NCBI GenBank assembly: GCA_025041175.1
Contig: JAKCFJ010000002.1
Span: 186,001-250,000, forward strand
DNA from: Halobacteriales archaeon YIM A00010
GTDB lineage: Archaea > Halobacteriota > Halobacteria > Halobacteriales > Haloarculaceae
Length of the DNA stretch: 64,000 nucleotides
Direction of reading: 5' to 3'
Within the stretch, counting starts at the first letter, position 1, and every line of letters begins with the position of its first letter. The translations under genes were made by a program, and so were the position numbers. The notes under the pieces were generated by a model. That model was not told the DNA's origin. It ran no database searches and saw only the letters and a program-made list of their open reading frames with translations. Below are positions 32,941-54,875 of this stretch, piece after piece.

Positions 32941-33513
32941 TCAGGGACCCTCATCGGACGAGCCACTGAACGCTCGGCGAGTTGCATCAGTAACGCCATC
33001 ACACGAGAACACCGTCACGAGGTCATCCGGTTGGAGCGTCGTGTCGCCGTGTGGTGTGAGAATCTCGGTGTCCCGCCTGATGGAGATAACGAGCGGTTCC
33101 TCATCGAGAATTCCACTCCCGACCGCTTCTGAAACGTCCATCTTTGCGATGGGGGCTTCGGACTCGACCGTCACCTCGACAACCTCGGACTCGCAACTGA
33201 CGAAATCGATCTCGATGCCTTCCTCTGACAGCGTGGTTCCGATCCGTCGAAGGTCGTCAGTGTCCCTGTTGACTGCCAGAGCGTGGAAATTCCGTCGTCC
33301 AGCCCGTTCGAAATTGACGTGCGCGCGGTAGCCCTCGATGATCCTGTCTCCTTCGAGCGAGTCGATTCGGTTCCGGACCGTTCCTTGGGAGACGCCGATG
33401 GTCTCGGCGATAGTCGGAGCTGAGTTCGATCCAGCATCGGTCATTAGCCTGTGGATGATCTGTTGATCGATTTCGTCGAGCCGGCGTTCCGAAGCTGGTG
33501 TTTGCTGACTCAC
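32941..33513 (-). CDS. Lrp/AsnC-type regulator with TrkA-C domain
   Basis: The 190-residue protein has an AsnC-type winged helix (DEIDQQIIHRLMTDAGSNSAPTIAETIGVSQGTVRNRIDSLE) at about residues 11-60, an AsnC ligand-like middle region, and a TrkA-C (RCK-C) domain at 120-178 (SIRRDTEILTPHGDTTLQPDDLVTVFS). RCK-C domains bind cyclic dinucleotides or other ligands in potassium channels and antiporters. It lies upstream of the antiporter on the same strand with an 87-bp gap, which suggests it senses the same ion or second messenger and controls that gene. Confidence 0.8.
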   Translation of the reverse strand: MSQQTPASERRLDEIDQQIIHRLMTDAGSNSAPTIAETIGVSQGTVRNRIDSLEGDRIIEGYRAHVNFERAGRRNFHALAVNRDTDDLRRIGTTLSEEGIEIDFVSCESEVVEVTVESEAPIAKMDVSEAVGSGILDEEPLVISIRRDTEILTPHGDTTLQPDDLVTVFSCDGVTDATRRAFSGSSDEGP

Positions 33514-33941
33514 TGTTTCTACTTCAGTAGATACGAGGGAGATATATAAACTAATTTTTCAATGAAAATTTATTGCCGGTATTATTTCTGGAATCGGGTA
33601 ATACCACTGCCGGGATTCTCGGTAGGGGTGTTCCGTCCCCACGGAATGCGCTCGGATCACGATCGAAAACGGACCGTTCGGCCGTTCGACACGGAATTTC
33701 GAGCGTCGCGTGTCGACGGCGAGAGGAACGGATCTCGGTCGCCTAGCAGCCGCTCACCGAGAAGAGCTGGTTCTACCGCCGACAGCGACACCGGTGTGTG
33801 TCGGTGCCTCCGGCGTGACAGGGTTGCGATCGCCGGGCAGTAGGGCGCAGCCCGTATCGAGGCCGATTAGCTGTTTGTAGGCGGTAAGCTCCCTTCCTCA
33901 ACGCCCGAACGGAGTGAGGGCGTAGGGAGGGGATACACCGT
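33514..33941. other. Spacer with a solo IS200/IS605-type end
   Basis: No intact gene. A short plus-strand reading after 33562 has no domain. The right part (33888-33932) holds the IS-end-like hairpin described separately. Confidence 0.35.
33888..33932. mobile_element. Solo tnpB-type right-end hairpin
   Basis: A structured GC-rich hairpin of the form CTTCCTCAACGCCC, loop, GGGCGTAGGGAGGGG. The same architecture occurs at 34967-35012, at the 3' end of a broken tnpB. It therefore looks like the right end and guide-RNA scaffold of a second, lost element. Confidence 0.5.
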
Positions 33942-33991
33942 TCACAAGAGCGAAGCTCTTGTGAGCGAACGAATCGCTCTGCGATTCGTTC
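33942..33991. repeat. Hairpin pair at the 5' end of the broken tnpB
   Basis: Two adjacent perfect hairpins: a 10-bp stem TCACAAGAGC with loop GAA (33942-33964) and an 11-bp stem GAACGAATCGC with loop TCT (33967-33991). They sit at the point where TnpB similarity begins. Confidence 0.85.
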
Positions 33992-34374
33992 ACGCTAGAT
34001 TGTTTTCAAACTTCGAACTCGACAAGAAGAGTGGTCAGACTGTGTTGGAACTGTCGAAACTCGCGGATATTCCACTACGAATGCACCGACCGATTCCTGA
34101 CGCGGCGAAGCTCAAAGAGGTCACGCTCAAAAAAGAGCCGACCGGTGAGTGGTTCGCCATCTTCGGCATCGAATTCGACCGAGAGCCGCCCGAACCGCCC
34201 GAGAATCCCAACAACGTCGTCGGTATCGACGTTGGGATTCTCAAATACGCGCACGACACAGATGGAACGGCGGTTGGGTCGCTCGACCTCTCCGACGAGC
34301 GTGAACGGCTCGAACGCGAACAGCGGACCCTCTCTCGGAAAGAATACGGCTCTGCCAACTGGGAGAAACAGCGT

Positions 34375-34433
34375 CACCAGAAATCTTCGATTTCTGGCTG
34401 GCGAACGAGACGCTCGCGTCTCGTTAACGCAAA
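34375..34433. repeat. 59-bp insertion of two hairpins inside tnpB
   Basis: Between codons CGT (34372-34374) and CGC (34434-34436), where TnpB proteins read Arg-Arg, lie a 9-bp stem CCAGAAATC with loop TTC (34377-34397) and a 10-bp stem AACGAGACGC with a 2-base loop (34404-34425). The 59 bases shift the frame by two. Confidence 0.85.
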
Positions 34434-34844
34434 CGCGTGGCAGAGTGTCACGATACGATCAAATGCAAACGCCGTGACTTCCTCCACAAACTATCGACCT
34501 ACTACGCTCGGGAGTACGATCTCGTCGCTGTAGAGAATTTGAACGTTGTCGGGATGATGCAGTTCAACTCGAACTCACGAAACCGAGCAGCCGCTGCATG
34601 GGGTACTTTTCTACGGATGCTCGAGTATAAATGCGAACGGGAAGGAACGCATTTCGTCCCGGTTGACCCACGGAACACCACCAAAGAGTGCGCTGCTTGC
34701 GGCGTGAAAACCGATAAACCGCTGTGGGTCCGCGAACACGCCTGTCCATCGTGTGGATTCACCACAGACAGAGACTGGAATGCAGCGTGGAACATTCTTT
34801 CTCGCGGGATCAAGCAATTAGGAGTGGGACACTCCGAAGTCACG

Positions 34845-34900
34845 TGGTCCGAGAGAGCGAAGCTCTCTCGTCATCACGAAAATCTTCGATTTTCGAACGA
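34845..34900. repeat. 56-bp insertion of two hairpins near the tnpB 3' end
   Basis: Between ACG of GVGHSEVT and CCT of PVETALP lie a 9-bp stem CGAGAGAGC with loop GAA (34850-34870) and an 8-bp stem CGAAAATC with loop TTC (34877-34895). The 56 bases again shift the frame. Confidence 0.85.
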
Positions 34901-34966
34901 CCTGTGGAGACTGCGCTCCCTACGGGAACCACGGCGGTTCCTGCAAAGCGTGTCGTGGAAACAGGA

Positions 34967-35012
34967 AGCCCCTCCCTCAAGCGCGAGCCGTCAGGCGAGC
35001 GGTAGGGTGGGG
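34967..35012. mobile_element. tnpB right-end hairpin (guide-RNA scaffold region)
   Basis: A GC-rich imperfect hairpin CCCCTCCCTCAAGCGC, loop, GCGGTAGGGTGGGG overlaps the last codons of the broken tnpB. In IS200/IS605 elements this position carries the right end and the 3' part of the guide RNA. It borders the stop codon of queC. Confidence 0.5.
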
Positions 35013-35016
35013 TCGT

Positions 35017-35703
35017 TCACGCGTAGTCCGGTCGTTGTTCGTACGTAATGGGATCGCGCACCCCGATCCGCTGGAACGCCTGGAGGCGGTAAGCACACGC
35101 GTCACACGTCCCACACGCCGGCTCGTCGCTCCGGTAACAGCTCCACGTCAGTTCGTAGGGCACGCCCCGCTCGACCCCGCGGGCCGCGATGTCGGTTTTC
35201 GACCATTCGGCGAACGGTGCTTCGACGGTGATGGCTGTCTCGTCTTTCGTGCCGGTGTCGACGAGGCGTTGAAACGCCTCGAAAAACGCCGGGCGACAGT
35301 CCGGATAGCCGGAGAAGTCCTCCGAATGCGCGCCGGTGAACACCGCGTCACAGTCGTTCGCTTCGGCGTATGCGACCGCCATCGAGAGGAGGTTGGCGTT
35401 CCGGAAGGGGACGTACGAGTCCGGCACTTCATCGCGTTCGAGGTCGGCCTCGGAAACGGCCAGCCCCTCGTCGGTGAGGCTCGATGCGCCGATCTTCGAG
35501 AGATGGTCGGTGGTCAACCGCAGGAAGTCGGTCGCGCCGAACCGTTCGGCCTGGGCCTTCGCACACTCGTACTCCTTCGATTCGGTTCGCTGTCCGTAGG
35601 AGGTGTGGAGCATGTACAGCTCGTACCCTCGTTCCTGTGCGACCGCTGCCGCTGTCGCGCTGTCCATGCCGCCCGACGCGAGCACCACTGCCCGGTCGCT
35701 CAT
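35017..35703 (-). CDS. queC: 7-cyano-7-deazaguanine synthase (QueC)
   Basis: This ATP-dependent enzyme turns 7-carboxy-7-deazaguanine into preQ0, the precursor of archaeosine in tRNA. The 228-residue protein has the PP-loop SGGMDSATA near residue 10 and the C-terminal zinc site CYRSDEPACGTCDACAYR. Length is normal. It is the last gene of a queD-queE-queC run on the minus strand, 57 bases after queE. Confidence 0.92.
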   Translation of the reverse strand: MSDRAVVLASGGMDSATAAAVAQERGYELYMLHTSYGQRTESKEYECAKAQAERFGATDFLRLTTDHLSKIGASSLTDEGLAVSEADLERDEVPDSYVPFRNANLLSMAVAYAEANDCDAVFTGAHSEDFSGYPDCRPAFFEAFQRLVDTGTKDETAITVEAPFAEWSKTDIAARGVERGVPYELTWSCYRSDEPACGTCDACAYRLQAFQRIGVRDPITYEQRPDYA

Positions 35704-35760
35704 CGTGGATCACGTATGCTTTCTATTTCTCTTATCATTCGTTTGTCGTTCATCAGTAGT

Positions 35761-36528
35761 TCACGTACCAGGTGCGTCGTTCCAGAGATCGACGTGGAGA
35801 CGGGGCGTGTACCGATAGCCGTTGTCCAACGCCAGCTGTGCCACCTCGTTCCGTCGCTCGTCGATGGCTTCTCGGGTCGTTCCCTCCGGCATCAACAGCA
35901 CGTCGCTGTCGGCGATCGTCGTCCGTGCCGCGCTTCGTACTCGGTCGACGATCCGCTCGATTTCGGGGAGATCACCGGCGTCGGTCACGACGAACTTGAG
36001 CTGGAACTCGTAGGTGTCGACGAGTGCGGCCAGCGTGTCGGGATCGACGCGCCGCTTTTCGTGGCGATCGGCCCATTCGCCGCTTCCTGTGGGGTCTTTT
36101 TGTGGTGTCGGCGTGCTCGATGCGAGCTTCGGACTGATGCTGAGGAGATCGATCGGTGCTTCTCGATGGATCGTGCCGTTCGTCTCGACCGTGGTGTGGT
36201 AGCCCAGCTCCTCGAGTCGCTCCAGCAGCGTGACTGACTCGGCGTGGACGAGCGGTTCCCCACCGGTCAGAACGACGTGGTCGGCCGCCGAATACGACTG
36301 GATCTCGGAAACGATCGCATCGAGCGAACGCTGGGCGTGGACTGGCTCCCACGACGTGTGGTAGGAGTCACAGAACCAACACCTGAGGTTACAGCCGCTG
36401 GTACGGACGAACACGCTCGCCACCCCAGCCAGCCGTCCCTCCCCCTGTATCGAGTGAAACAGCTCGTTGATCGGCAATGCCTCGCTGTCGGGTCGGTCGG
36501 GGTCGGTGATCGTGTCGTTGACGGGCAT
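35761..36528 (-). CDS. queE: 7-carboxy-7-deazaguanine synthase (QueE), radical SAM
   Basis: QueE makes 7-carboxy-7-deazaguanine from 6-carboxytetrahydropterin in the archaeosine pathway. The 255-residue protein contains the cluster motif CNLRCWFC with a preceding FVRTSGCNL, the glycine motif TGGEPL, and the family segment FHSIQGEG. It starts three bases after the queD stop, so the two are co-translated. Confidence 0.92.
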   Translation of the reverse strand: MPVNDTITDPDRPDSEALPINELFHSIQGEGRLAGVASVFVRTSGCNLRCWFCDSYHTSWEPVHAQRSLDAIVSEIQSYSAADHVVLTGGEPLVHAESVTLLERLEELGYHTTVETNGTIHREAPIDLLSISPKLASSTPTPQKDPTGSGEWADRHEKRRVDPDTLAALVDTYEFQLKFVVTDAGDLPEIERIVDRVRSAARTTIADSDVLLMPEGTTREAIDERRNEVAQLALDNGYRYTPRLHVDLWNDAPGT

Positions 36529-36531
36529 TGG

Positions 36532-36984
36532 TTACTGGACCGCTTGGGCACACAGCTCGGACGTTTCGCGGACCCGAACCGAAACGTCGGAAACGGTGTC
36601 CGGTAGCTCCTCACGGAGACGGGATTCGAGGTACACACCCATCACTTCCGCTGTCGGTGGATGGTCGAGCACGATCACGGCCTCCCCATCCCCGCTCTGC
36701 TCGAACGCCTCGATCAAGGGATCCCCCGCTTCGAGCAGAAACCGGTGGTCCCACTCTGAGATGACTGACGTAATATCACCTTTATCGACCACCCATCCTG
36801 ATTCCGTGAGTGCTCCAGTGATCTCGATGGAGATCGCGTAGTTGTGGCCGTGCGGACGGCTACACTTGCCGTCGTGGTGGAGAAGCCGATGACCCGAACT
36901 GATGCGGATCGGCCGTTCGATCCCGATTCCGAGCGTACGCTCTTTGGCGTCCAGCCGTCGTGTCGTGGATCTCTGATGTGACAT
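36532..36984 (-). CDS. queD: 6-carboxy-5,6,7,8-tetrahydropterin synthase (QueD)
   Basis: QueD converts dihydroneopterin triphosphate to 6-carboxytetrahydropterin. The 150-residue protein has the zinc His set (SGHRLLHHDGKCSRPHGHNY) and the catalytic Cys within it, VVDKGDIT, and a C-terminal Glu motif. It is the promoter-proximal gene of the archaeosine precursor operon. Confidence 0.9.
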   Translation of the reverse strand: MSHQRSTTRRLDAKERTLGIGIERPIRISSGHRLLHHDGKCSRPHGHNYAISIEITGALTESGWVVDKGDITSVISEWDHRFLLEAGDPLIEAFEQSGDGEAVIVLDHPPTAEVMGVYLESRLREELPDTVSDVSVRVRETSELCAQAVQ

Positions 36985-37094
36985 GGATATTCTACAGATA
37001 TACGCTATATATTCTTGACGGAATATGGATCCATCGGTACCTCGTTTACCAGTATTATTCTCGGTTTCTTACTACGTACCCGGTATTCATCGTC

Positions 37095-38384
37095 TTATCG
37101 TCGTTGGAGCCGTGGTTCGAGTCGGCGACGGAGGAGATACGCCCCGACGAGCAGCGTCGGGGAAACGACCAGCCCACCAGCTACGTCAGGTCCCAGCAGT
37201 TCGACCGTTGTCGATCCGAGCGGGATAGAGAGAGCGACTCCATCACTGAGTCCCATCCACACGACGGTAACGAGCGGTACGACAGCGAGGAGGTTCCAGG
37301 CGGTGGGACGAACGCGGTATCCGTAGTCGTACCGATCTCGCCACGGAACGACAGAGAGCACCCACAACGCACCGACGATACCGCCAACGAGACAGACGAG
37401 CATACCCAGTGCGAAACCGAAATTCAGCAGGCTTCCGAGGTGGAGCGGACCGGCGCGCAGCGTCGGAACCCACGGCGTTCCCTGGTTCGGTGCAACCGTC
37501 TCGACGAACGCCGAGAGCGCACTGCCCTTGCCGGCTGACGTGAACAGAACGGTAGCGCTCCCGAGCAAGCCGAGTACGAGACCGAGCCGCAGTTCTTCGG
37601 AGAGCCGATCGATCGATAGGGGCAAAATCCAGCTGAGCAGCATTCCGACTGGAACGCCGAGAACGAGACAACCGCCACAGACGACGAGCGCGTACGGGAC
37701 GACCATGAACGCGTAGAAGGTCCCTCCGCTCGGTGTGCCGGATGCGGTCGCAGCCCAGAGCAGCCCCAATCCGAGCACGTGGACCGCCAGCACGGGCCAG
37801 ATCGCAATGGGTGTCGGCGCGAACTGGGCCCGGCTCCGTGGCTCCTCGAACGGGAGCGGGGAGAGGACGCCGTATCCCGCGTAGCTCACACAGAGGCTCA
37901 CGAGGACGACCCCGAGTTCGGCGGCCGGCGACACCGCGTTGTCAACCCGGATCGTCCACACCACCGCGAGGCTGAGGACGGCCGCGACAGGGAGCCGAAC
38001 GACCGTCGGGGAACGCACCACGTCCGAGACGCCGATGGCTTGGGGCCGCAAGCGGGCGAACCCCCGCTTCGTCCGTTGAGGAATCGTTTGCAGCCGGGCA
38101 ACACCGTCCAGTATCGGTTCGATCAGTGCTCGGTCGATTCGTCTGCCGATCCCACCGGACGAACCCTCGGACTGGATATCGTGAGCCCGGTCGTACCGTT
38201 GGCGCGCTTGTGGATCTAACAGCGTTTCTTTGGCTGCTCGTATCCGCATGAACGTCTCGTCGGCACCCGGATCGTCGCTTCGATCGGGATGGTGTTCTTT
38301 CACTTTCTGCCGGTACGCCCGCTCGATCTCCTCCTCGGTGGCGTCAGGGCTGATATCGAGGACGTCGTAGTACGTATCTGTCAT
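37095..38384 (-). CDS. DnaJ-domain membrane protein
   Basis: The 429-residue protein starts with a J domain (residues 1-65) with an intact HPD at 32-34, then a basic stretch, and about ten hydrophobic helices from residue 125 to the end, including GVLLSWILPLSI-type segments. J domains recruit Hsp70 (DnaK); here they would do so at the membrane. There is no zinc-finger region of classical DnaJ. The membrane part is not recognised. Confidence 0.75.
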   Translation of the reverse strand: MTDTYYDVLDISPDATEEEIERAYRQKVKEHHPDRSDDPGADETFMRIRAAKETLLDPQARQRYDRAHDIQSEGSSGGIGRRIDRALIEPILDGVARLQTIPQRTKRGFARLRPQAIGVSDVVRSPTVVRLPVAAVLSLAVVWTIRVDNAVSPAAELGVVLVSLCVSYAGYGVLSPLPFEEPRSRAQFAPTPIAIWPVLAVHVLGLGLLWAATASGTPSGGTFYAFMVVPYALVVCGGCLVLGVPVGMLLSWILPLSIDRLSEELRLGLVLGLLGSATVLFTSAGKGSALSAFVETVAPNQGTPWVPTLRAGPLHLGSLLNFGFALGMLVCLVGGIVGALWVLSVVPWRDRYDYGYRVRPTAWNLLAVVPLVTVVWMGLSDGVALSIPLGSTTVELLGPDVAGGLVVSPTLLVGAYLLRRRLEPRLQRR

Positions 38385-38668
38385 CTGGTGTGTTGGAGTT
38401 CGAGGGGGAAACGGCGCTGGCCCACGTCTCTCCGTCGCATCGGCGTGGACTCGCCACCGGTCGCTCCGAGGACGGGTTCGCGGACTGCGTAGCTGACGTG
38501 GTCATCGATCCCAACGAGACGCGTATCTGTTCCCACTCCACATGGTAGCCATAACGAACAATATGAGATTAAATCTGTCGTCGAGTGTAGTCGTTACGCT
38601 GGAAGCGTGGACCGCGAGAAGCGTCTCCGTCGCCAGCGCGGTGCACTCTCGGCTCACGATTCTCGCGG
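38385..38668. other. Spacer between the J-domain and site-2 protease genes
   Basis: Both neighbouring genes read on the minus strand, so this holds the J-domain gene promoter. No other gene is supported. Confidence 0.3.
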
Positions 38669-39835
38669 TTAGCGGTGCAGTTCGGCGTCTGTCCGTCGAA
38701 TTGTCGGCGGCCGTCCACCGGTCTGGACGACGTTGAACGCTCGCATGAGGTCCGTTCGAGAGATGATGCCGACGAGCTGCTCGTCCGAATCGACGACCGG
38801 GAGCCGTCCGACCTCGCGCTCTTGTATCCGCTCGAACGCTTCCATCGCGTCAACACTGGGAGTGACCGTTTCGACAGGGGTCGACATCACGTCACCAACG
38901 CGGTAGGCGTCCTGTTCGACGGTCTGGATGTCCGCCGCGTCATCCAGCGTGATCACGCCGACGAGTTCTTCGCCGTTCACTACGGGATAACCGATGTGAC
39001 CGTCTTCGAACATCCGGTCCAGGAGCTCGGCGATGCTGGTGTCCTTCGAGACTGTTCTGAGGTTCTCTTTCGGTGTCATCACGTCATCCACGGTGACGCC
39101 TTCGAAGGACGCCTTGATGGAGGTCTGTTGTGCTTCTCCGGAGGCGGCAATGTAGATGAAAAACGCCAGCAGAATGAGAAACCAGTTGGTGAACACTCCG
39201 ACGATCCCCAACACGAACGCGAAGAACTTTCCGACCTCAGCGGCTTGCTGTGTCGCCTGTGCGTGGGGCTGGCTCCGGGCGAGCAGCGCCCTGAGGATTC
39301 GCCCACCGTCCATTGGGAAGCCGGGAAGCAGGTTGAACACAGCGAGCACGACGTTCAACACCGCGAGATAGCTGAAGACGAACCGAGCCGCTTCGAACGA
39401 TGCTGGAAGGAAGACGAACGCCCCATAGGAGACGACGCCGATCCCCAGGCTCACGACCGGCCCAGCGCTGGCGATCAGCAGCTCGTGGCGCCAGTCCTCG
39501 GGGAACTCCGCGAAATTGGCCACTCCACCGAGCAACCATAGCGTGATCGAATCGATTTCGTATCCATACCGCATTGCGACCACCGAATGCCCAAGCTCGT
39601 GCAACAACACACCAATGAACAGCCCGACTGCCGACGCAAAGCCCAACACCCACGGCAACCAGCCATTGGTCAGCTGTTCGGCGTTCATCGTCGTGGCAAA
39701 CACCTGATTGAGCAGCTCCACCAACTGAGCGATGTCCCACGCGATGAACGCCGCAAACAGTGGGAGCACGATCAGAAATGTCCAGTTGAGCCTGATCGGG
39801 ATAGTGAACGCCGATCCAACTCGGATTCCTCGCAT
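38669..39835 (-). CDS. Site-2 protease (M50) with CBS domain pair
   Basis: This intramembrane zinc metalloprotease has 388 residues: membrane helices with HELGH (residues 79-83), a second motif NLLPGFPMDGGR at about 168-180 giving the third ligand Asp, and a cytoplasmic CBS pair from about 240 (VDDVMTPKENLRTV, IGYPVVNGEELVGVITLDD, VGRLPVVDSDEQLVGIISRTDLMRAF). CBS domains bind adenosine nucleotides and probably gate the protease. Substrates may be membrane-bound regulators. Confidence 0.88.
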   Translation of the reverse strand: MRGIRVGSAFTIPIRLNWTFLIVLPLFAAFIAWDIAQLVELLNQVFATTMNAEQLTNGWLPWVLGFASAVGLFIGVLLHELGHSVVAMRYGYEIDSITLWLLGGVANFAEFPEDWRHELLIASAGPVVSLGIGVVSYGAFVFLPASFEAARFVFSYLAVLNVVLAVFNLLPGFPMDGGRILRALLARSQPHAQATQQAAEVGKFFAFVLGIVGVFTNWFLILLAFFIYIAASGEAQQTSIKASFEGVTVDDVMTPKENLRTVSKDTSIAELLDRMFEDGHIGYPVVNGEELVGVITLDDAADIQTVEQDAYRVGDVMSTPVETVTPSVDAMEAFERIQEREVGRLPVVDSDEQLVGIISRTDLMRAFNVVQTGGRPPTIRRTDAELHR

Positions 39836-39903
39836 ACCCTGTTGTTAGGGACGCGATGCTTAAAGAGGTGACTTGGCTGACGAAAAGAGGATGATTCGGA
39901 CGA

Positions 39904-40087
39904 ACAGCGTATACAGTGTAAACAGTACGAACAGTGCTGCGTCAACGCTGTCTCTTCCCCGCTACGCGGGCGATCCGGAGACCGCTCGAACTCGTAGAAG
40001 CCGATGGCCGAGGTGTCTCACTACAACCACAGGCCGCACAGTTCGCACGTTTTACAACGCTGGCACTGTATACGATGTCGATACTGT
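39904..40087. repeat. Second ACWGT cluster, 10 kb from the ParA locus
   Basis: Four units at 39904-39935 (ACAGC, ACAGT, ACAGT, ACAGT) and six at 40038-40087 (ACAGT, ACGTT, AACGC, ACTGT, GATGT, ACTGT) lie on 9-bp spacing. The two runs are not in the same phase. No gene occupies this interval. Confidence 0.75.
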
Positions 40088-40183
40088 GCTTATGGACCTA
40101 TAACATCACTTAGCCAATAACATAACAATAAAAATATTTTTCAAAATGACTATCTACCCCCCTGTAGACAACACTACTGTGCT

Positions 40184-40498
40184 ATGTGTGGAAAACAGCT
40201 AACGGACGTGTTCGCCGACCACGCGGAATACGAACCGTTTCCGGACGCGGAGGAGACCGACATGGGGAGAGAGATATTTAGTTTCACAAATAGTAATGGC
40301 GAATATATTATGTACCATCGGTACGATCGTGACTCGTTCATCGCAACGTACACTGACCGACAGGGAGCGTCTCACCACTACCGTGTGACACCCCAGATCA
40401 GCATTCGAGTGTCGACGTTGGTCGTGAACCGACTCGGATACACGCTGATAGACGACGCAACCGATCTCGGTTCGATGCGGGAAACGGCGGAATCGTAA
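40184..40498 (+). CDS. Small hypothetical protein, 104 residues
   Basis: The protein MCGKQLTDVFADHAEYEPFP continues with acidic and aromatic residues and a beta-rich middle (EIFSFTNSNGEYIMYHRYDRDSFIATYTDR). It lacks a signal peptide or membrane segment. I do not recognise a family. Codon use and acidity fit a haloarchaeal gene. An AT-rich leader with TATA-like sequence (AATAAAAATATTTT) precedes it. Confidence 0.45.
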   Translation: MCGKQLTDVFADHAEYEPFPDAEETDMGREIFSFTNSNGEYIMYHRYDRDSFIATYTDRQGASHHYRVTPQISIRVSTLVVNRLGYTLIDDATDLGSMRETAES

Positions 40499-40638
40499 TA
40501 CGGCAGTTGCAAGGAGTCGTATCGACGGACGATCGTCTTACAGTGCTCGAGGAGAAAATCCACAGCTTTCCAGTAGCTGTTGGTGTAAACAACTCTTCCC
40601 TCCCCCCTCGGACTTCACCGTCGATCGTTGCGAGTGTC

Positions 40639-40787
40639 GTCGGGCAAAGCCCGACTGCTTGCGGGACGTAGTCCCGCGCTGTCACCAGAAGCCAAGGCTT
40701 CTGGTTGACTCACGAGAGTGTGCTCTCGTGAATGTCGCCAGATTCCATCGGAATCTGGCTGCTAACCAGAAATCATCGATTTCTGGT
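40639..40787. repeat. Cluster of six perfect hairpins in 150 bp
   Basis: Successive perfect stems: GTCGGGC loop AAA (40639-40655); GCGGGAC loop GTA (40661-40677); ACCAGAAGCC loop AA (40684-40705); TCACGAGAG loop TGTG (40710-40731); CCAGATTCC loop ATC (40738-40758); ACCAGAAATC loop ATC (40765-40787). The last is nearly the same as the first hairpin in the tnpB insertion at 34377. They look like three hairpin pairs placed next to one another. Confidence 0.88.
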
Positions 40788-40846
40788 CAGTACGATTTGA
40801 AGTCAGGAGTTCACTGGCAAGCCAACGACTGACGCCGCTGGTAGGT

Positions 40847-41209
40847 GACACACCCCCTCGTTCGGAATGAGATAGCAACCTCTGCACCATCGTATGAGGA
40901 GTCGTATCTCCACTTGGTCAGAAGGATTACCGTGCTGAATCGTGCACAGGCGCGCTCGTCATACGATACTACCACCCTAGCTTTGAGGATAGAATTGCTG
41001 TACTTCCCGTGTTAGGCGTATTCGAGAATACTTCTAACTAGTGACGTATTCTACTTGTGGAAATATTGGAGTTACTAAGTAATAAATCCAAGAGATAGCT
41101 ACGCAACTTCTGTGATATACTAGAGTAAATGGTTAGCAGCTAGGAACAGTACAGCACTGTCGCCATACAGTCAACTATACGGGATCTCATTCCGAATCAG
41201 GGGAGTGTC
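40847..41209. mobile_element. MITE-like element with 26-27 bp terminal inverted repeats
   Basis: The left end (40847-40873, beginning GACACACCCCC and ending TTCGGAATGAGAT) and right end (41184-41209, ATCTCATTCCGAA then TCAGGGGAGTGTC) are inverted copies with 13 identical bases at the inner side and matches outside. The 363-bp interior has no gene. That is the form of a miniature inverted-repeat transposable element mobilised by some insertion sequence. I see no clear target duplication. Confidence 0.6.
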
Positions 41210-41274
41210 CGGTCCTCTGGGACAGTAACAAGCTCACTCCACATCAGCAACTACTGTTCAGCCGTGGGAGGACG

Positions 41275-42654
41275 TCAAGCGTCTACAGCGATGACGTTGC
41301 GGGGTTCAGATGGCCGATCGGCGGAGGCATCGCTGTTATCAGTGTCGACGAATTGAACATTGACAACCACGTCGTAGTCGGTTTGGTCGGCGAGCCGTCG
41401 TGCGAGCGTCGTCGCCAGCGTTGGGTACGCGGCTTCGACGGGACGGTTGACTGTCACCTCCACGTGAATCGGTGTTCGGTGTCCAGCGCCGACTACGTCG
41501 AACGCGATGGCCGTTTCACTCGATCGTACCGTCGTTGTCTGCAGCGACAGCTCCTGATACGGTTGTTCATCGAGCGTCTCACGGACGGTTGCTGTCGACT
41601 CCTGTTCGATCGTCGACTGCTGGTAGGTGAGATACGTAACGCCACCCAGAAACACCGAGAGAGCGATGAGAGCGAGGGCGAGGACACGGAGTCGGCGTCG
41701 CATCGTGGCTTTGGCTGCATCGATATCCGTCGATCGCAGGGGACGGTAATCGAGGAACCAGAACACCACGAGCGCAGCGAGGTTGATCGACAGCACGTTC
41801 ACGAACAACAGGACTCCCGAGCCGAGGCTCACGATGGGCTGTCCCCAGGCGAGTCCGATACCCACAGTCGCAGCCGGTGGAATGAGCGCCACGGTGATCA
41901 TCACCCCGACGAGCGCCACACTGGATCCGGTTGCGAGGCTGATCGCGCCGGCAACACCTGCCCCGAGCGCGACCGCGAGAGAGAGAAAAGCCGGGGCGAG
42001 CCGGCTTTGTATCTCGGGAATTTCAGTGATAGCGGTCCCGGGCGGCATCAGCCCGGTGAATCGAACGATCGTCCCGAAGACGGCTGCGCTCGTGATTGCG
42101 AGCGCGAGCCCGAACGCCTGCAACCGCACACCACGCGTTGTCAACCCCCTATCGTCGATAACAGTTCCCACGGACGCGGCCATCGCCGGACCGACCAGCG
42201 GCGCGATCACCATCGATCCGACGACAACAGCGGCCGAGTCCTGGAGAAGTCCCACGGTTGCCACCACTGCACTGACGGCGGTCATCGCCACGTACGACCA
42301 GCGCTCTGCTCGCTCGGGGGCGAGGTCTTCGGCTGCCGTTTGGAGTTCCTCCCGAGGGGTGCGTCCCGGATGGACGGCTTGAGCAGTGTCCGCTTCGCGC
42401 TGTCGTTCGAATCGGTCGGAGACGATGGTTTTGGCGTCGAGCACCACAGTCCACGCCTCCTCTGAAAGCCCGATCTCCTCGAATCGGTCGATCGTCCGTT
42501 CGATATCATCCAACGGAAGCGGAAACGACACCACCGCCTCGTATCGATCCTCGCTCGATTCGTCAGTGACAGCGTAGTCGACTCCCTCAGCATCAAGCAC
42601 GGCGAGAACGTCCTCACGCTTTCCAACCGGAATCGACACCTGCACAAAGCGCAT
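41275..42654 (-). CDS. DUF389 (TIGR00341-type) membrane protein
   Basis: The 459-residue protein has an N-terminal ferredoxin-like domain (MRFVQVSIPVGKREDVLAVLDAEGVDY) at residues 1-75, then about ten helices with the DUF389 core SAVVATVGLLQDSAAVVVGSMVIAPLVGPAMA and LATGSSVALVGVMITVALIPPAATVGIG, and a C-terminal soluble part. Function of the family is unknown. The ATG of MRFVQVS is preferred over an upstream ATG because the extension has no homology-like character. Confidence 0.8.
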   Translation of the reverse strand: MRFVQVSIPVGKREDVLAVLDAEGVDYAVTDESSEDRYEAVVSFPLPLDDIERTIDRFEEIGLSEEAWTVVLDAKTIVSDRFERQREADTAQAVHPGRTPREELQTAAEDLAPERAERWSYVAMTAVSAVVATVGLLQDSAAVVVGSMVIAPLVGPAMAASVGTVIDDRGLTTRGVRLQAFGLALAITSAAVFGTIVRFTGLMPPGTAITEIPEIQSRLAPAFLSLAVALGAGVAGAISLATGSSVALVGVMITVALIPPAATVGIGLAWGQPIVSLGSGVLLFVNVLSINLAALVVFWFLDYRPLRSTDIDAAKATMRRRLRVLALALIALSVFLGGVTYLTYQQSTIEQESTATVRETLDEQPYQELSLQTTTVRSSETAIAFDVVGAGHRTPIHVEVTVNRPVEAAYPTLATTLARRLADQTDYDVVVNVQFVDTDNSDASADRPSEPRNVIAVDA

Positions 42655-47067: not shown

Positions 47068-47221
47068 GTTTTTCCGCGAACAGTGCGGTCGCGGTGCGGT
47101 GAGTACACCCACCGCGAGCGCAGTTCCCGTGAGCAACGCGAGCGGGAGCAAGCGAGCGGCTTTTTTCGCCCACGTTTTTTGCGCGAGGGTGGCCGAAGGC
47201 CACCCGAGCGGAAAAAAGGTG
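47068..47221 (-). repeat. Dispersed non-coding element, copy 1
   Basis: Between the two 78-bp repeats lies a GC-rich segment with a long imperfect hairpin around GGGTGGCC, GAA, GGCCACCC flanked by T6 and A6 tracts. Its reverse complement matches 54671-54875 over most of its length. It carries no ORF of its own. Confidence 0.75.
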
Positions 47222-54670: not shown

Positions 54671-54875
54671 CCACCTTTTTTCCGTTCGGGTGGCCTTCGG
54701 CCACCCTCACACAAAAAACGTGGGCGAAAAAAGGCCGCTCACTCGGCGAGACGGTCGCTCACTCCGCTCGCGCTGCGACTCGCCTGCTCCCACTCGCTCC
54801 GCTCGTGGGAACTTCGTTCGCGGTGAGTGTACTCACCGCTACCGCCTCCGCACCGCTCCGCACGGGAAACGTCTA
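54671..54875 (+). repeat. Dispersed non-coding element, copy 2
   Basis: Just after the NCS2 stop codon lies GCCACCTTTTTTCCG, then a strong hairpin GGGTGGCC, TTC, GGCCACCC, and ACAAAAAACGTGGGCG, matching the reverse complement of 47068-47221. This copy has an extra GC-rich stretch before the shared end (GGTGAGTGTACTCACCGC). It fills the space between two convergent genes. Confidence 0.75.

What the first reader, a model, noticed from the sequence alone, without database searches (positions are those of the whole stretch)
33942..34900. Frame-breaking insertions of paired perfect hairpins in a tnpB gene
Insertions of 59 and 56 bases interrupt tnpB at places where the protein is otherwise continuous, and a third pair sits at its truncated 5' edge. 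Each consists of two adjacent perfect hairpins (stems 8-11 bp, mostly 3-base loops such as GAA/TTC) with unrelated stem sequences. The shared architecture with changing sequence suggests a micro-element or a mutational process that copies hairpins, not a classical IS.
Basis: partly seen in the sequence, partly recalled or inferred. Interest (0 to 1): 0.82.

Follow-up and report, generated by a model that had tools for sequence, protein, structure and literature searches.

The report
Paired-hairpin insertions, a haloarchaeal micro-element
The odd inserts in this broken tnpB gene are copies of a tiny (about 50-60 bp) dispersed DNA element made of two perfect hairpins, spread widely through salt-loving archaea and also found in frame inside essential genes, but what moves it is unknown.

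Summary
Three pairs of perfect hairpins sit in a decayed IS605-type tnpB element (window 33867-35020), and tnpB relatives without them show that two are true 56-bp insertions. They belong to a large dispersed family. A 2.03-Mb sample of this genome holds 83 hairpin pairs or arrays against 3 in a Markov control, and the family recurs throughout Halobacteria. Sixty-eight insertions have a clean empty counterpart. Two-hairpin inserts are 46-60 bp (mode 57), make no fixed target duplication, and 52 of 68 fit insertion directly after a G with the insert starting TC. Spacers are conserved. Stems change on both arms together, and 77% of three-base loops are GNA or TNC, the compact DNA hairpin cap. 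Arrays grow by tandem or nested insertion. They also lie in frame in host genes (PEP carboxylase, acyl-CoA ligase, valyl-tRNA synthetase), absent or of other length in relatives. Best reading: a non-autonomous REP-like element moved as single-stranded hairpin DNA. The enzyme is unproven; presence of a Y1 (IS200) transposase does not predict copy number. Nearest known: bacterial GTAG/CGTC REPs and Haloquadratum "SMR-A" repeats. New variant of a known kind; not described in haloarchaea in the papers I could search.

The parts
33867..35020 (+). Decayed IS200/IS605-type (tnpB-only) element that carries the three hairpin pairs; ends TTAGCTG...GTTCAC
   Evidence: Ends taken from two copies in the same genome that are 99.1% identical over 1626 bp with different flanks; Pfam OrfB_IS605 / Cas12f1-like_TNB and NCBIfam guided_TnpB on the pieces
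33941..33994 (+). Paired-hairpin insert 1, T-hp-GC-hp-ACG, at the recurrent site GGGGATACACCG^; the following sequence (from 33995) is mid-tnpB, so a deletion adjoins it
   Evidence: the same site is filled or empty in other species
34374..34429 (+). Paired-hairpin insert 2 (56 bp): TCA-CCAGAAATC(ttc)GATTTCTGG-ctggcg-AACGAGACGC(tc)GCGTCTCGTT-AACG, inserted after AGCG
   Evidence: Empty site in L046 and others; DNA fold z -5.3
34845..34900 (+). Paired-hairpin insert 3 (56 bp): TGGTC-CGAGAGAGC(gaa)GCTCTCTCG-tcatca-CGAAAATC(ttc)GATTTTCG-AACGA, between tnpB codons EVT and PVETALP
   Evidence: Empty sites in L046, L053, L066, L051; other tnpB copies carry pairs with other stems at the same site
33995..34373 (+). 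tnpB fragment 1
   Evidence: PF01385
34430..34844 (+). tnpB fragment 2 (catalytic C-terminal part, TNB domain)
   Evidence: PF07282, PF01385; NF040570
34901..35012 (+). tnpB fragment 3 (PVETALP...VVETGSPSLK tail) in a shifted frame
   Evidence: Sequence read directly; alignment
40639..40787 (.). Second locus of the same family in the window: array of six hairpins

Best explanation
A family of very small non-autonomous mobile DNA elements, each two adjacent perfect hairpins about 26-28 bp apart. SHOWN: dispersed copies; insertion without a fixed target duplication, mostly directly 3' of a G with the insert starting TC (NYG^TC-hp1-spacer-hp2-RAYG^); the end of the element resembles its own target, so repeated insertion gives tandem and nested arrays; spacers are conserved while the two arms of a stem change together; loops are mostly C(GNA)G or its complement C(TNC)G. 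INFERRED: what is recognised is the folded single-stranded DNA, which leaves stem sequence free to vary as long as it pairs, and the element moves through a single-stranded intermediate cut and joined in trans, as IS200/IS605 and REP elements do. A Y1 (HUH) transposase is the natural candidate but not shown. Copies in the dying tnpB are landings in a dispensable multi-copy gene; those with 45- or 57-bp units can persist in frame in host genes as a Ser/Glu/Gln/Gly-rich linker.
For: 83 arrays in 2.03 Mb vs 3 in a Markov control; 208 of 243 loops are 3 nt, 160 of those GNA or TNC (77%; 12.5% by chance); closing pair C-G in 224 of 243. 68 filled/empty pairs; junction microhomology 0 in 20 and up to 5 in others; 52 of 68 fit G^TC; mode length 57 bp. 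Near-identical flanks in two sister species, one filled (L125) and one empty (L133, 99-100%): CTCTGACG^[TCC..hp..hp..GAACG]CTGTGAGG. Covariation in 24 distinct stems: 98.3% of cells paired, 7 of 10 pairs with double changes, 0 of 500 shuffles reach it; 33 of 35 CCAGAA-NN hairpins paired at NN although not asked for. Nested insertion of one type inside another's spacer in several Halorubrum and others. In-frame copies: PEP carboxylase, absent in 28 relatives; acyl-CoA ligase; valyl-tRNA synthetase with two 45-bp units in G003, one in G005, none in other genus members. Older in-gene copies have mismatched stems, so perfect ones look young.
Against: No encoding gene found. Y1 presence does not predict copies: Fisher p 0.13; complete genomes without Y1 (e.g. 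G106) still hold perfect pairs. A quarter of the insertions do not fit G^TC, and the types (F1-F4) differ in ends, so more than one system may be lumped. No excision or transposition was observed. The IS605 element in this genome has other ends (TTAG......TTCAC), so the enzyme would need another target guide.
Confidence: 0.72

Rival explanations
1. Ends-only derivatives of IS605-type elements (PATE/SMR-like): the pairs are the left and right hairpins of core-deleted IS elements, moved by IS200 TnpA.
For: Haloquadratum has 52-bp ends-only PATEs that may move and ~110-bp SMR-A repeats with inverted ends, no duplication and preference for IS605 elements (PMC3119063); our four-hairpin inserts are 102-117 bp; 18 of 83 arrays abut tnpA/tnpB.
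Against: Ends of the resident IS do not resemble the hairpins; no full-length IS bounded by them was seen; no significant Y1 association.
Confidence: 0.2
2. A mutational process: fold-back template switching during replication makes or copies hairpins in place.
For: Perfect arms changing together; GAA and TTC loops on the same stem.
Against: Conserved spacers and end sequences across genera; precise insertions at shared sites; shared in-gene copies decay instead of being corrected.
Confidence: 0.07
3. A host-functional structured RNA or protein-binding DNA array (regulatory or chromosomal).
For: Covarying stems; many arrays outside tnp genes.
Against: No Rfam match; copies in frame inside enzymes and in pseudogenes, patchy between sister species; caps fit DNA triloops rather than the usual RNA tetraloops.
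Confidence: 0.05
4. Chance palindromes in GC-rich DNA or ancestral coding sequence of tnpB.
For: None found.
Against: 83 vs 3 in controls; empty tnpB copies.
Confidence: 0.01

Closest known systems
CGTC-tagged REPs of bacteria (Di Nocera et al. 2013, PMC3733652)
   Same: 8-9 bp palindromes with an unpaired CGTC or TGTC tag at one end, dimers and clusters, some in frame inside genes, no dedicated transposase
   Different: Loops 4-5 nt and a CCA tail there, head-to-head dimers; here 3-nt GNA/TNC loops, no CCA tail, tag made half by target (G) and half by insert (TC); that survey names no archaeon
GTAG REPs / BIMEs / REPINs with RAYT (TnpA_REP)
   Same: Paired hairpins, dispersed, array-forming, single-strand enzymology proposed
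   Different: No GTAG tag; no RAYT: archaea are reported to hold only Y1 subclass 1.1, the IS200 type (PMC6006769)
SMR-A and PATE repeats of Haloquadratum walsbyi (PMC3119063)
   Same: Haloarchaeal, no target duplication, preference for IS605-type elements; ~110 bp is the length of our four-hairpin inserts
   Different: Described as inverted-repeat elements in one species; the passages I read do not mention hairpin pairs or stem covariation; sequences are in supplements I could not read, so identity is untested
Rickettsia palindromic elements and double-hairpin elements of fungal mtDNA
   Same: In-frame or intergenic palindromic inserts; double-hairpin architecture (recalled, apart from RPE as cited in PMC3733652)
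   Different: Other domain or organelle; no sequence relation tested

Membership tests
CGTC REP superfamily | CGTC/TGTC tag next to the palindrome | tested here: inconclusive
   YGTC precedes most first hairpins, but filled/empty pairs put the cut inside the tag (G^TC)
CGTC REP superfamily | Loop 4-5 nt, stem starts with AT pairs, CCA tail | tested here: not met
   208 of 243 loops are 3 nt; stems mostly start RCC or CGA; tails often RAYG
GTAG REP / REPIN | GTAG tag and linked RAYT gene | tested here: not met
   No GTAG tag at the feet; Y1 presence not associated; archaeal Y1 reported as IS200 type only
IS200/IS605-derived miniature element | Hairpin ends, insertion 3' of a short target, no target duplication | tested here: met
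IS200/IS605-derived miniature element | Ends shared with a full IS that encodes TnpA | tested here: inconclusive
   The resident tnpB-only IS has different ends; only that one IS type was checked
MITE | Terminal inverted repeats and fixed-length target duplication | tested here: not met
   Junction microhomology 0-5, zero in 20 of 68
SMR-A (Haloquadratum) | Sequence identity to HqIRS42/43/55 | not testable with these tools
   Sequences only in supplementary files; two H. walsbyi loci do carry the CCAGAAATC hairpin
Known structured RNA | Match to an Rfam family | tested here: not met
   no match at E<=1 in 33500-41500

The most novel reading that the evidence does not exclude
A class of archaeal micro-transposons recognised by DNA shape alone (two C-GNA-G capped hairpins, stem sequence free), moved by an enzyme that is not a Y1/RAYT transposase and is still unidentified.
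Probability: 0.25. Interest if true: 0.85.

Novelty: new variant of a known kind. Interest (0 to 1): 0.62.

Why it matters
It adds an abundant REP-like mobile element to haloarchaea, where I found no such description, with dozens of mapped insertion points that make its target rule and engine testable. It shows in-frame growth of essential enzymes by hairpin arrays. It also bears on the open question of how CGTC-type REPs, which lack a known transposase, move: here the insertion point falls inside the tag.

Tried and rejected
Rfam search: nothing. Idea that purine-rich 5' arms give an orientation: wrong, since a hairpin keeps that property on both strands; orientation must be read from spacers. 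Idea of a 3-4 bp target duplication (acyl-CoA ligase site): rejected once other sites showed 0-5 bp microhomology and ends that differ from the target. Idea that presence of a Y1 transposase explains the spread: no significant association. Open-frame calls are naive and were not used as evidence of coding.

Full report
What is there. The window is G000:C2:186001-250000 of a 5.97-Mb haloarchaeal genome. By shared coordinates, relatives G001 and G003 match plasmid records of Actinarchaeum halophilum and Halocatena salina, so the genome is probably a Halocatena; that naming is inference. Three pairs of perfect hairpins lie at 33942-33991, 34377-34425 and 34850-34895. They sit in a tnpB-only IS605-type element whose ends, TTAGCTG and GTTCAC, I took from two other copies 99.1% identical over 1626 bp, which gives 33867-35020 here. 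Pfam and NCBIfam recognise the tnpB pieces.

Insertions, not ancestral sequence. tnpB relatives without the hairpins align straight through. The insert boundaries are 34374-34429 and 34845-34900, both 56 bp and so frame-shifting. The first pair sits at GGGGATACACCG^, a site that is empty in some species and filled with other pairs in others, and a deletion joins it to mid-tnpB. Other tnpB copies carry pairs with other stems at the third site, so that position is a recurrent target.

A dispersed family. A search of the own genome with this stretch hits the insert sequences at dozens of separate places, and 29 of 30 relatives have matches to the query, many of them to the inserts alone. A hairpin-chain scan of 2.03 Mb found 83 pairs or arrays of up to nine hairpins against 3 in a Markov control. 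The pattern CCAGAANNC-loop-GNNTTCTGG occurs 63 times in this genome and in 79 of 146 genomes of the order, with almost none for the reversed control. One exact form was in Halobacteria in 78 of 80 listed genome loci; the list was truncated.

Anatomy. Pairs have recurring spacer and end types: F1 TC-hp-tgcta-hp-GATG; F2 T(G/C)GTC-hp-tcatca-hp-AACGA; F3 TCAA-hp-gtatcca-hp-GCGA; F4 TCC-hp-tgtgcga-hp-CAACG; and arrays with a 45-bp two-hairpin period. Of 243 loops 208 are three bases, and 160 of these are GNA or TNC; the closing pair is C-G in 224. The inserts fold far better than shuffles as single-stranded DNA. Stems vary on both arms together (unbiased check). With one hairpin of a pair and the spacers given, the partner was perfect in 180 of 242 cases over four types; part of the remainder is background matches of the spacer pattern.

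Insertion rule. For 68 sites a clean empty counterpart was in hand. Two-hairpin inserts are 46-60 bp, mode 57. Bases shared between target and insert end range from 0 (20 sites) to 5, so there is no fixed target duplication. In 52 of 68 an insertion point directly after G with the insert starting TC is possible on one strand; I estimate about one in ten by chance, allowing for shifts and both strands. The ends (AACG, GATG) resemble the targets, which explains tandem arrays, and F1 is nested in the F2 spacer at its GATG in several genera. The cleanest case is L125 against L133, with flanks 99-100% identical.

Host genes. In frame and absent from relatives: seven hairpins in PEP carboxylase and a 57-bp pair in an acyl-CoA ligase. 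In frame, absence not tested: another AMP-dependent ligase and a GH3 glycosidase, and a glycosidase in G002; the last names rest on reading the sequence, with Pfam just below cut-off for GH3. Valyl-tRNA synthetase holds two 45-bp units in G003, one in G005 and none in other genus members. The 45-bp unit reads DSEEQSSSGSRPQAG without stops on one strand. The shared older units in valS have mismatched stems, so stems decay once in place and perfect copies are likely young.

Mechanism. Insertion without duplication next to a short target, hairpins with single-strand caps and tolerance of stem sequence are what IS200/IS605 and REP systems show, where a Y1 enzyme works on single-stranded DNA. I infer the same kind of movement. 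The enzyme is not shown: Y1 presence and hairpin number are not significantly linked over 146 genomes, and a complete genome without Y1 still has perfect pairs.

Known or new. Membership fails for GTAG REPs (tag, RAYT), for CGTC REPs (loop length, stem start, tail) and for MITEs (duplication). A 2018 survey reports only the IS200-type Y1 subclass in archaea (PMC6006769). The CGTC survey's text mentions archaea only in its reference list (PMC3733652), and a 2025 REP survey includes no haloarchaeon (PMC12306157). SMR-A of Haloquadratum (PMC3119063) may be the four-hairpin form; its sequences were out of reach. I therefore call it a new variant of a known kind, REP-like miniature elements, with the caution that only open-access papers were searched.

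Noticed in passing
window 47187-47205 and 54688-54706: Two single hairpins with the same stem GGGTGGCC and loops GAA / TTC; perhaps single-hairpin relatives of the family.
   Followed up: no
G000:C3:929738-929830 (L184, near 9778): A core-deleted IS with the same left end as the window element (97% over 93 bp), three hairpins in its middle and the IS right end after them, like a PATE.
   Followed up: partly
L224:3801-4010: A probable GH3 glycosidase gene with at least eight hairpins in frame, giving a long Ser/Glu/Gln-rich insert.
   Followed up: partly
G002 and G006: These two relatives give identical match coordinates on C1; G006 is larger and 9% contaminated, so it probably contains the G002 genome.
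   Followed up: no
L040:8105 and L226:7984: An F2 pair with about 130 bp of shared flank occurs at two distant places, so larger segments carrying pairs are duplicated too.
   Followed up: no
window 35017-36984 (- strand): Three genes that read like queC, queE and queD (archaeosine pathway) lie next to the IS remnant; judged by eye only.
   Followed up: no
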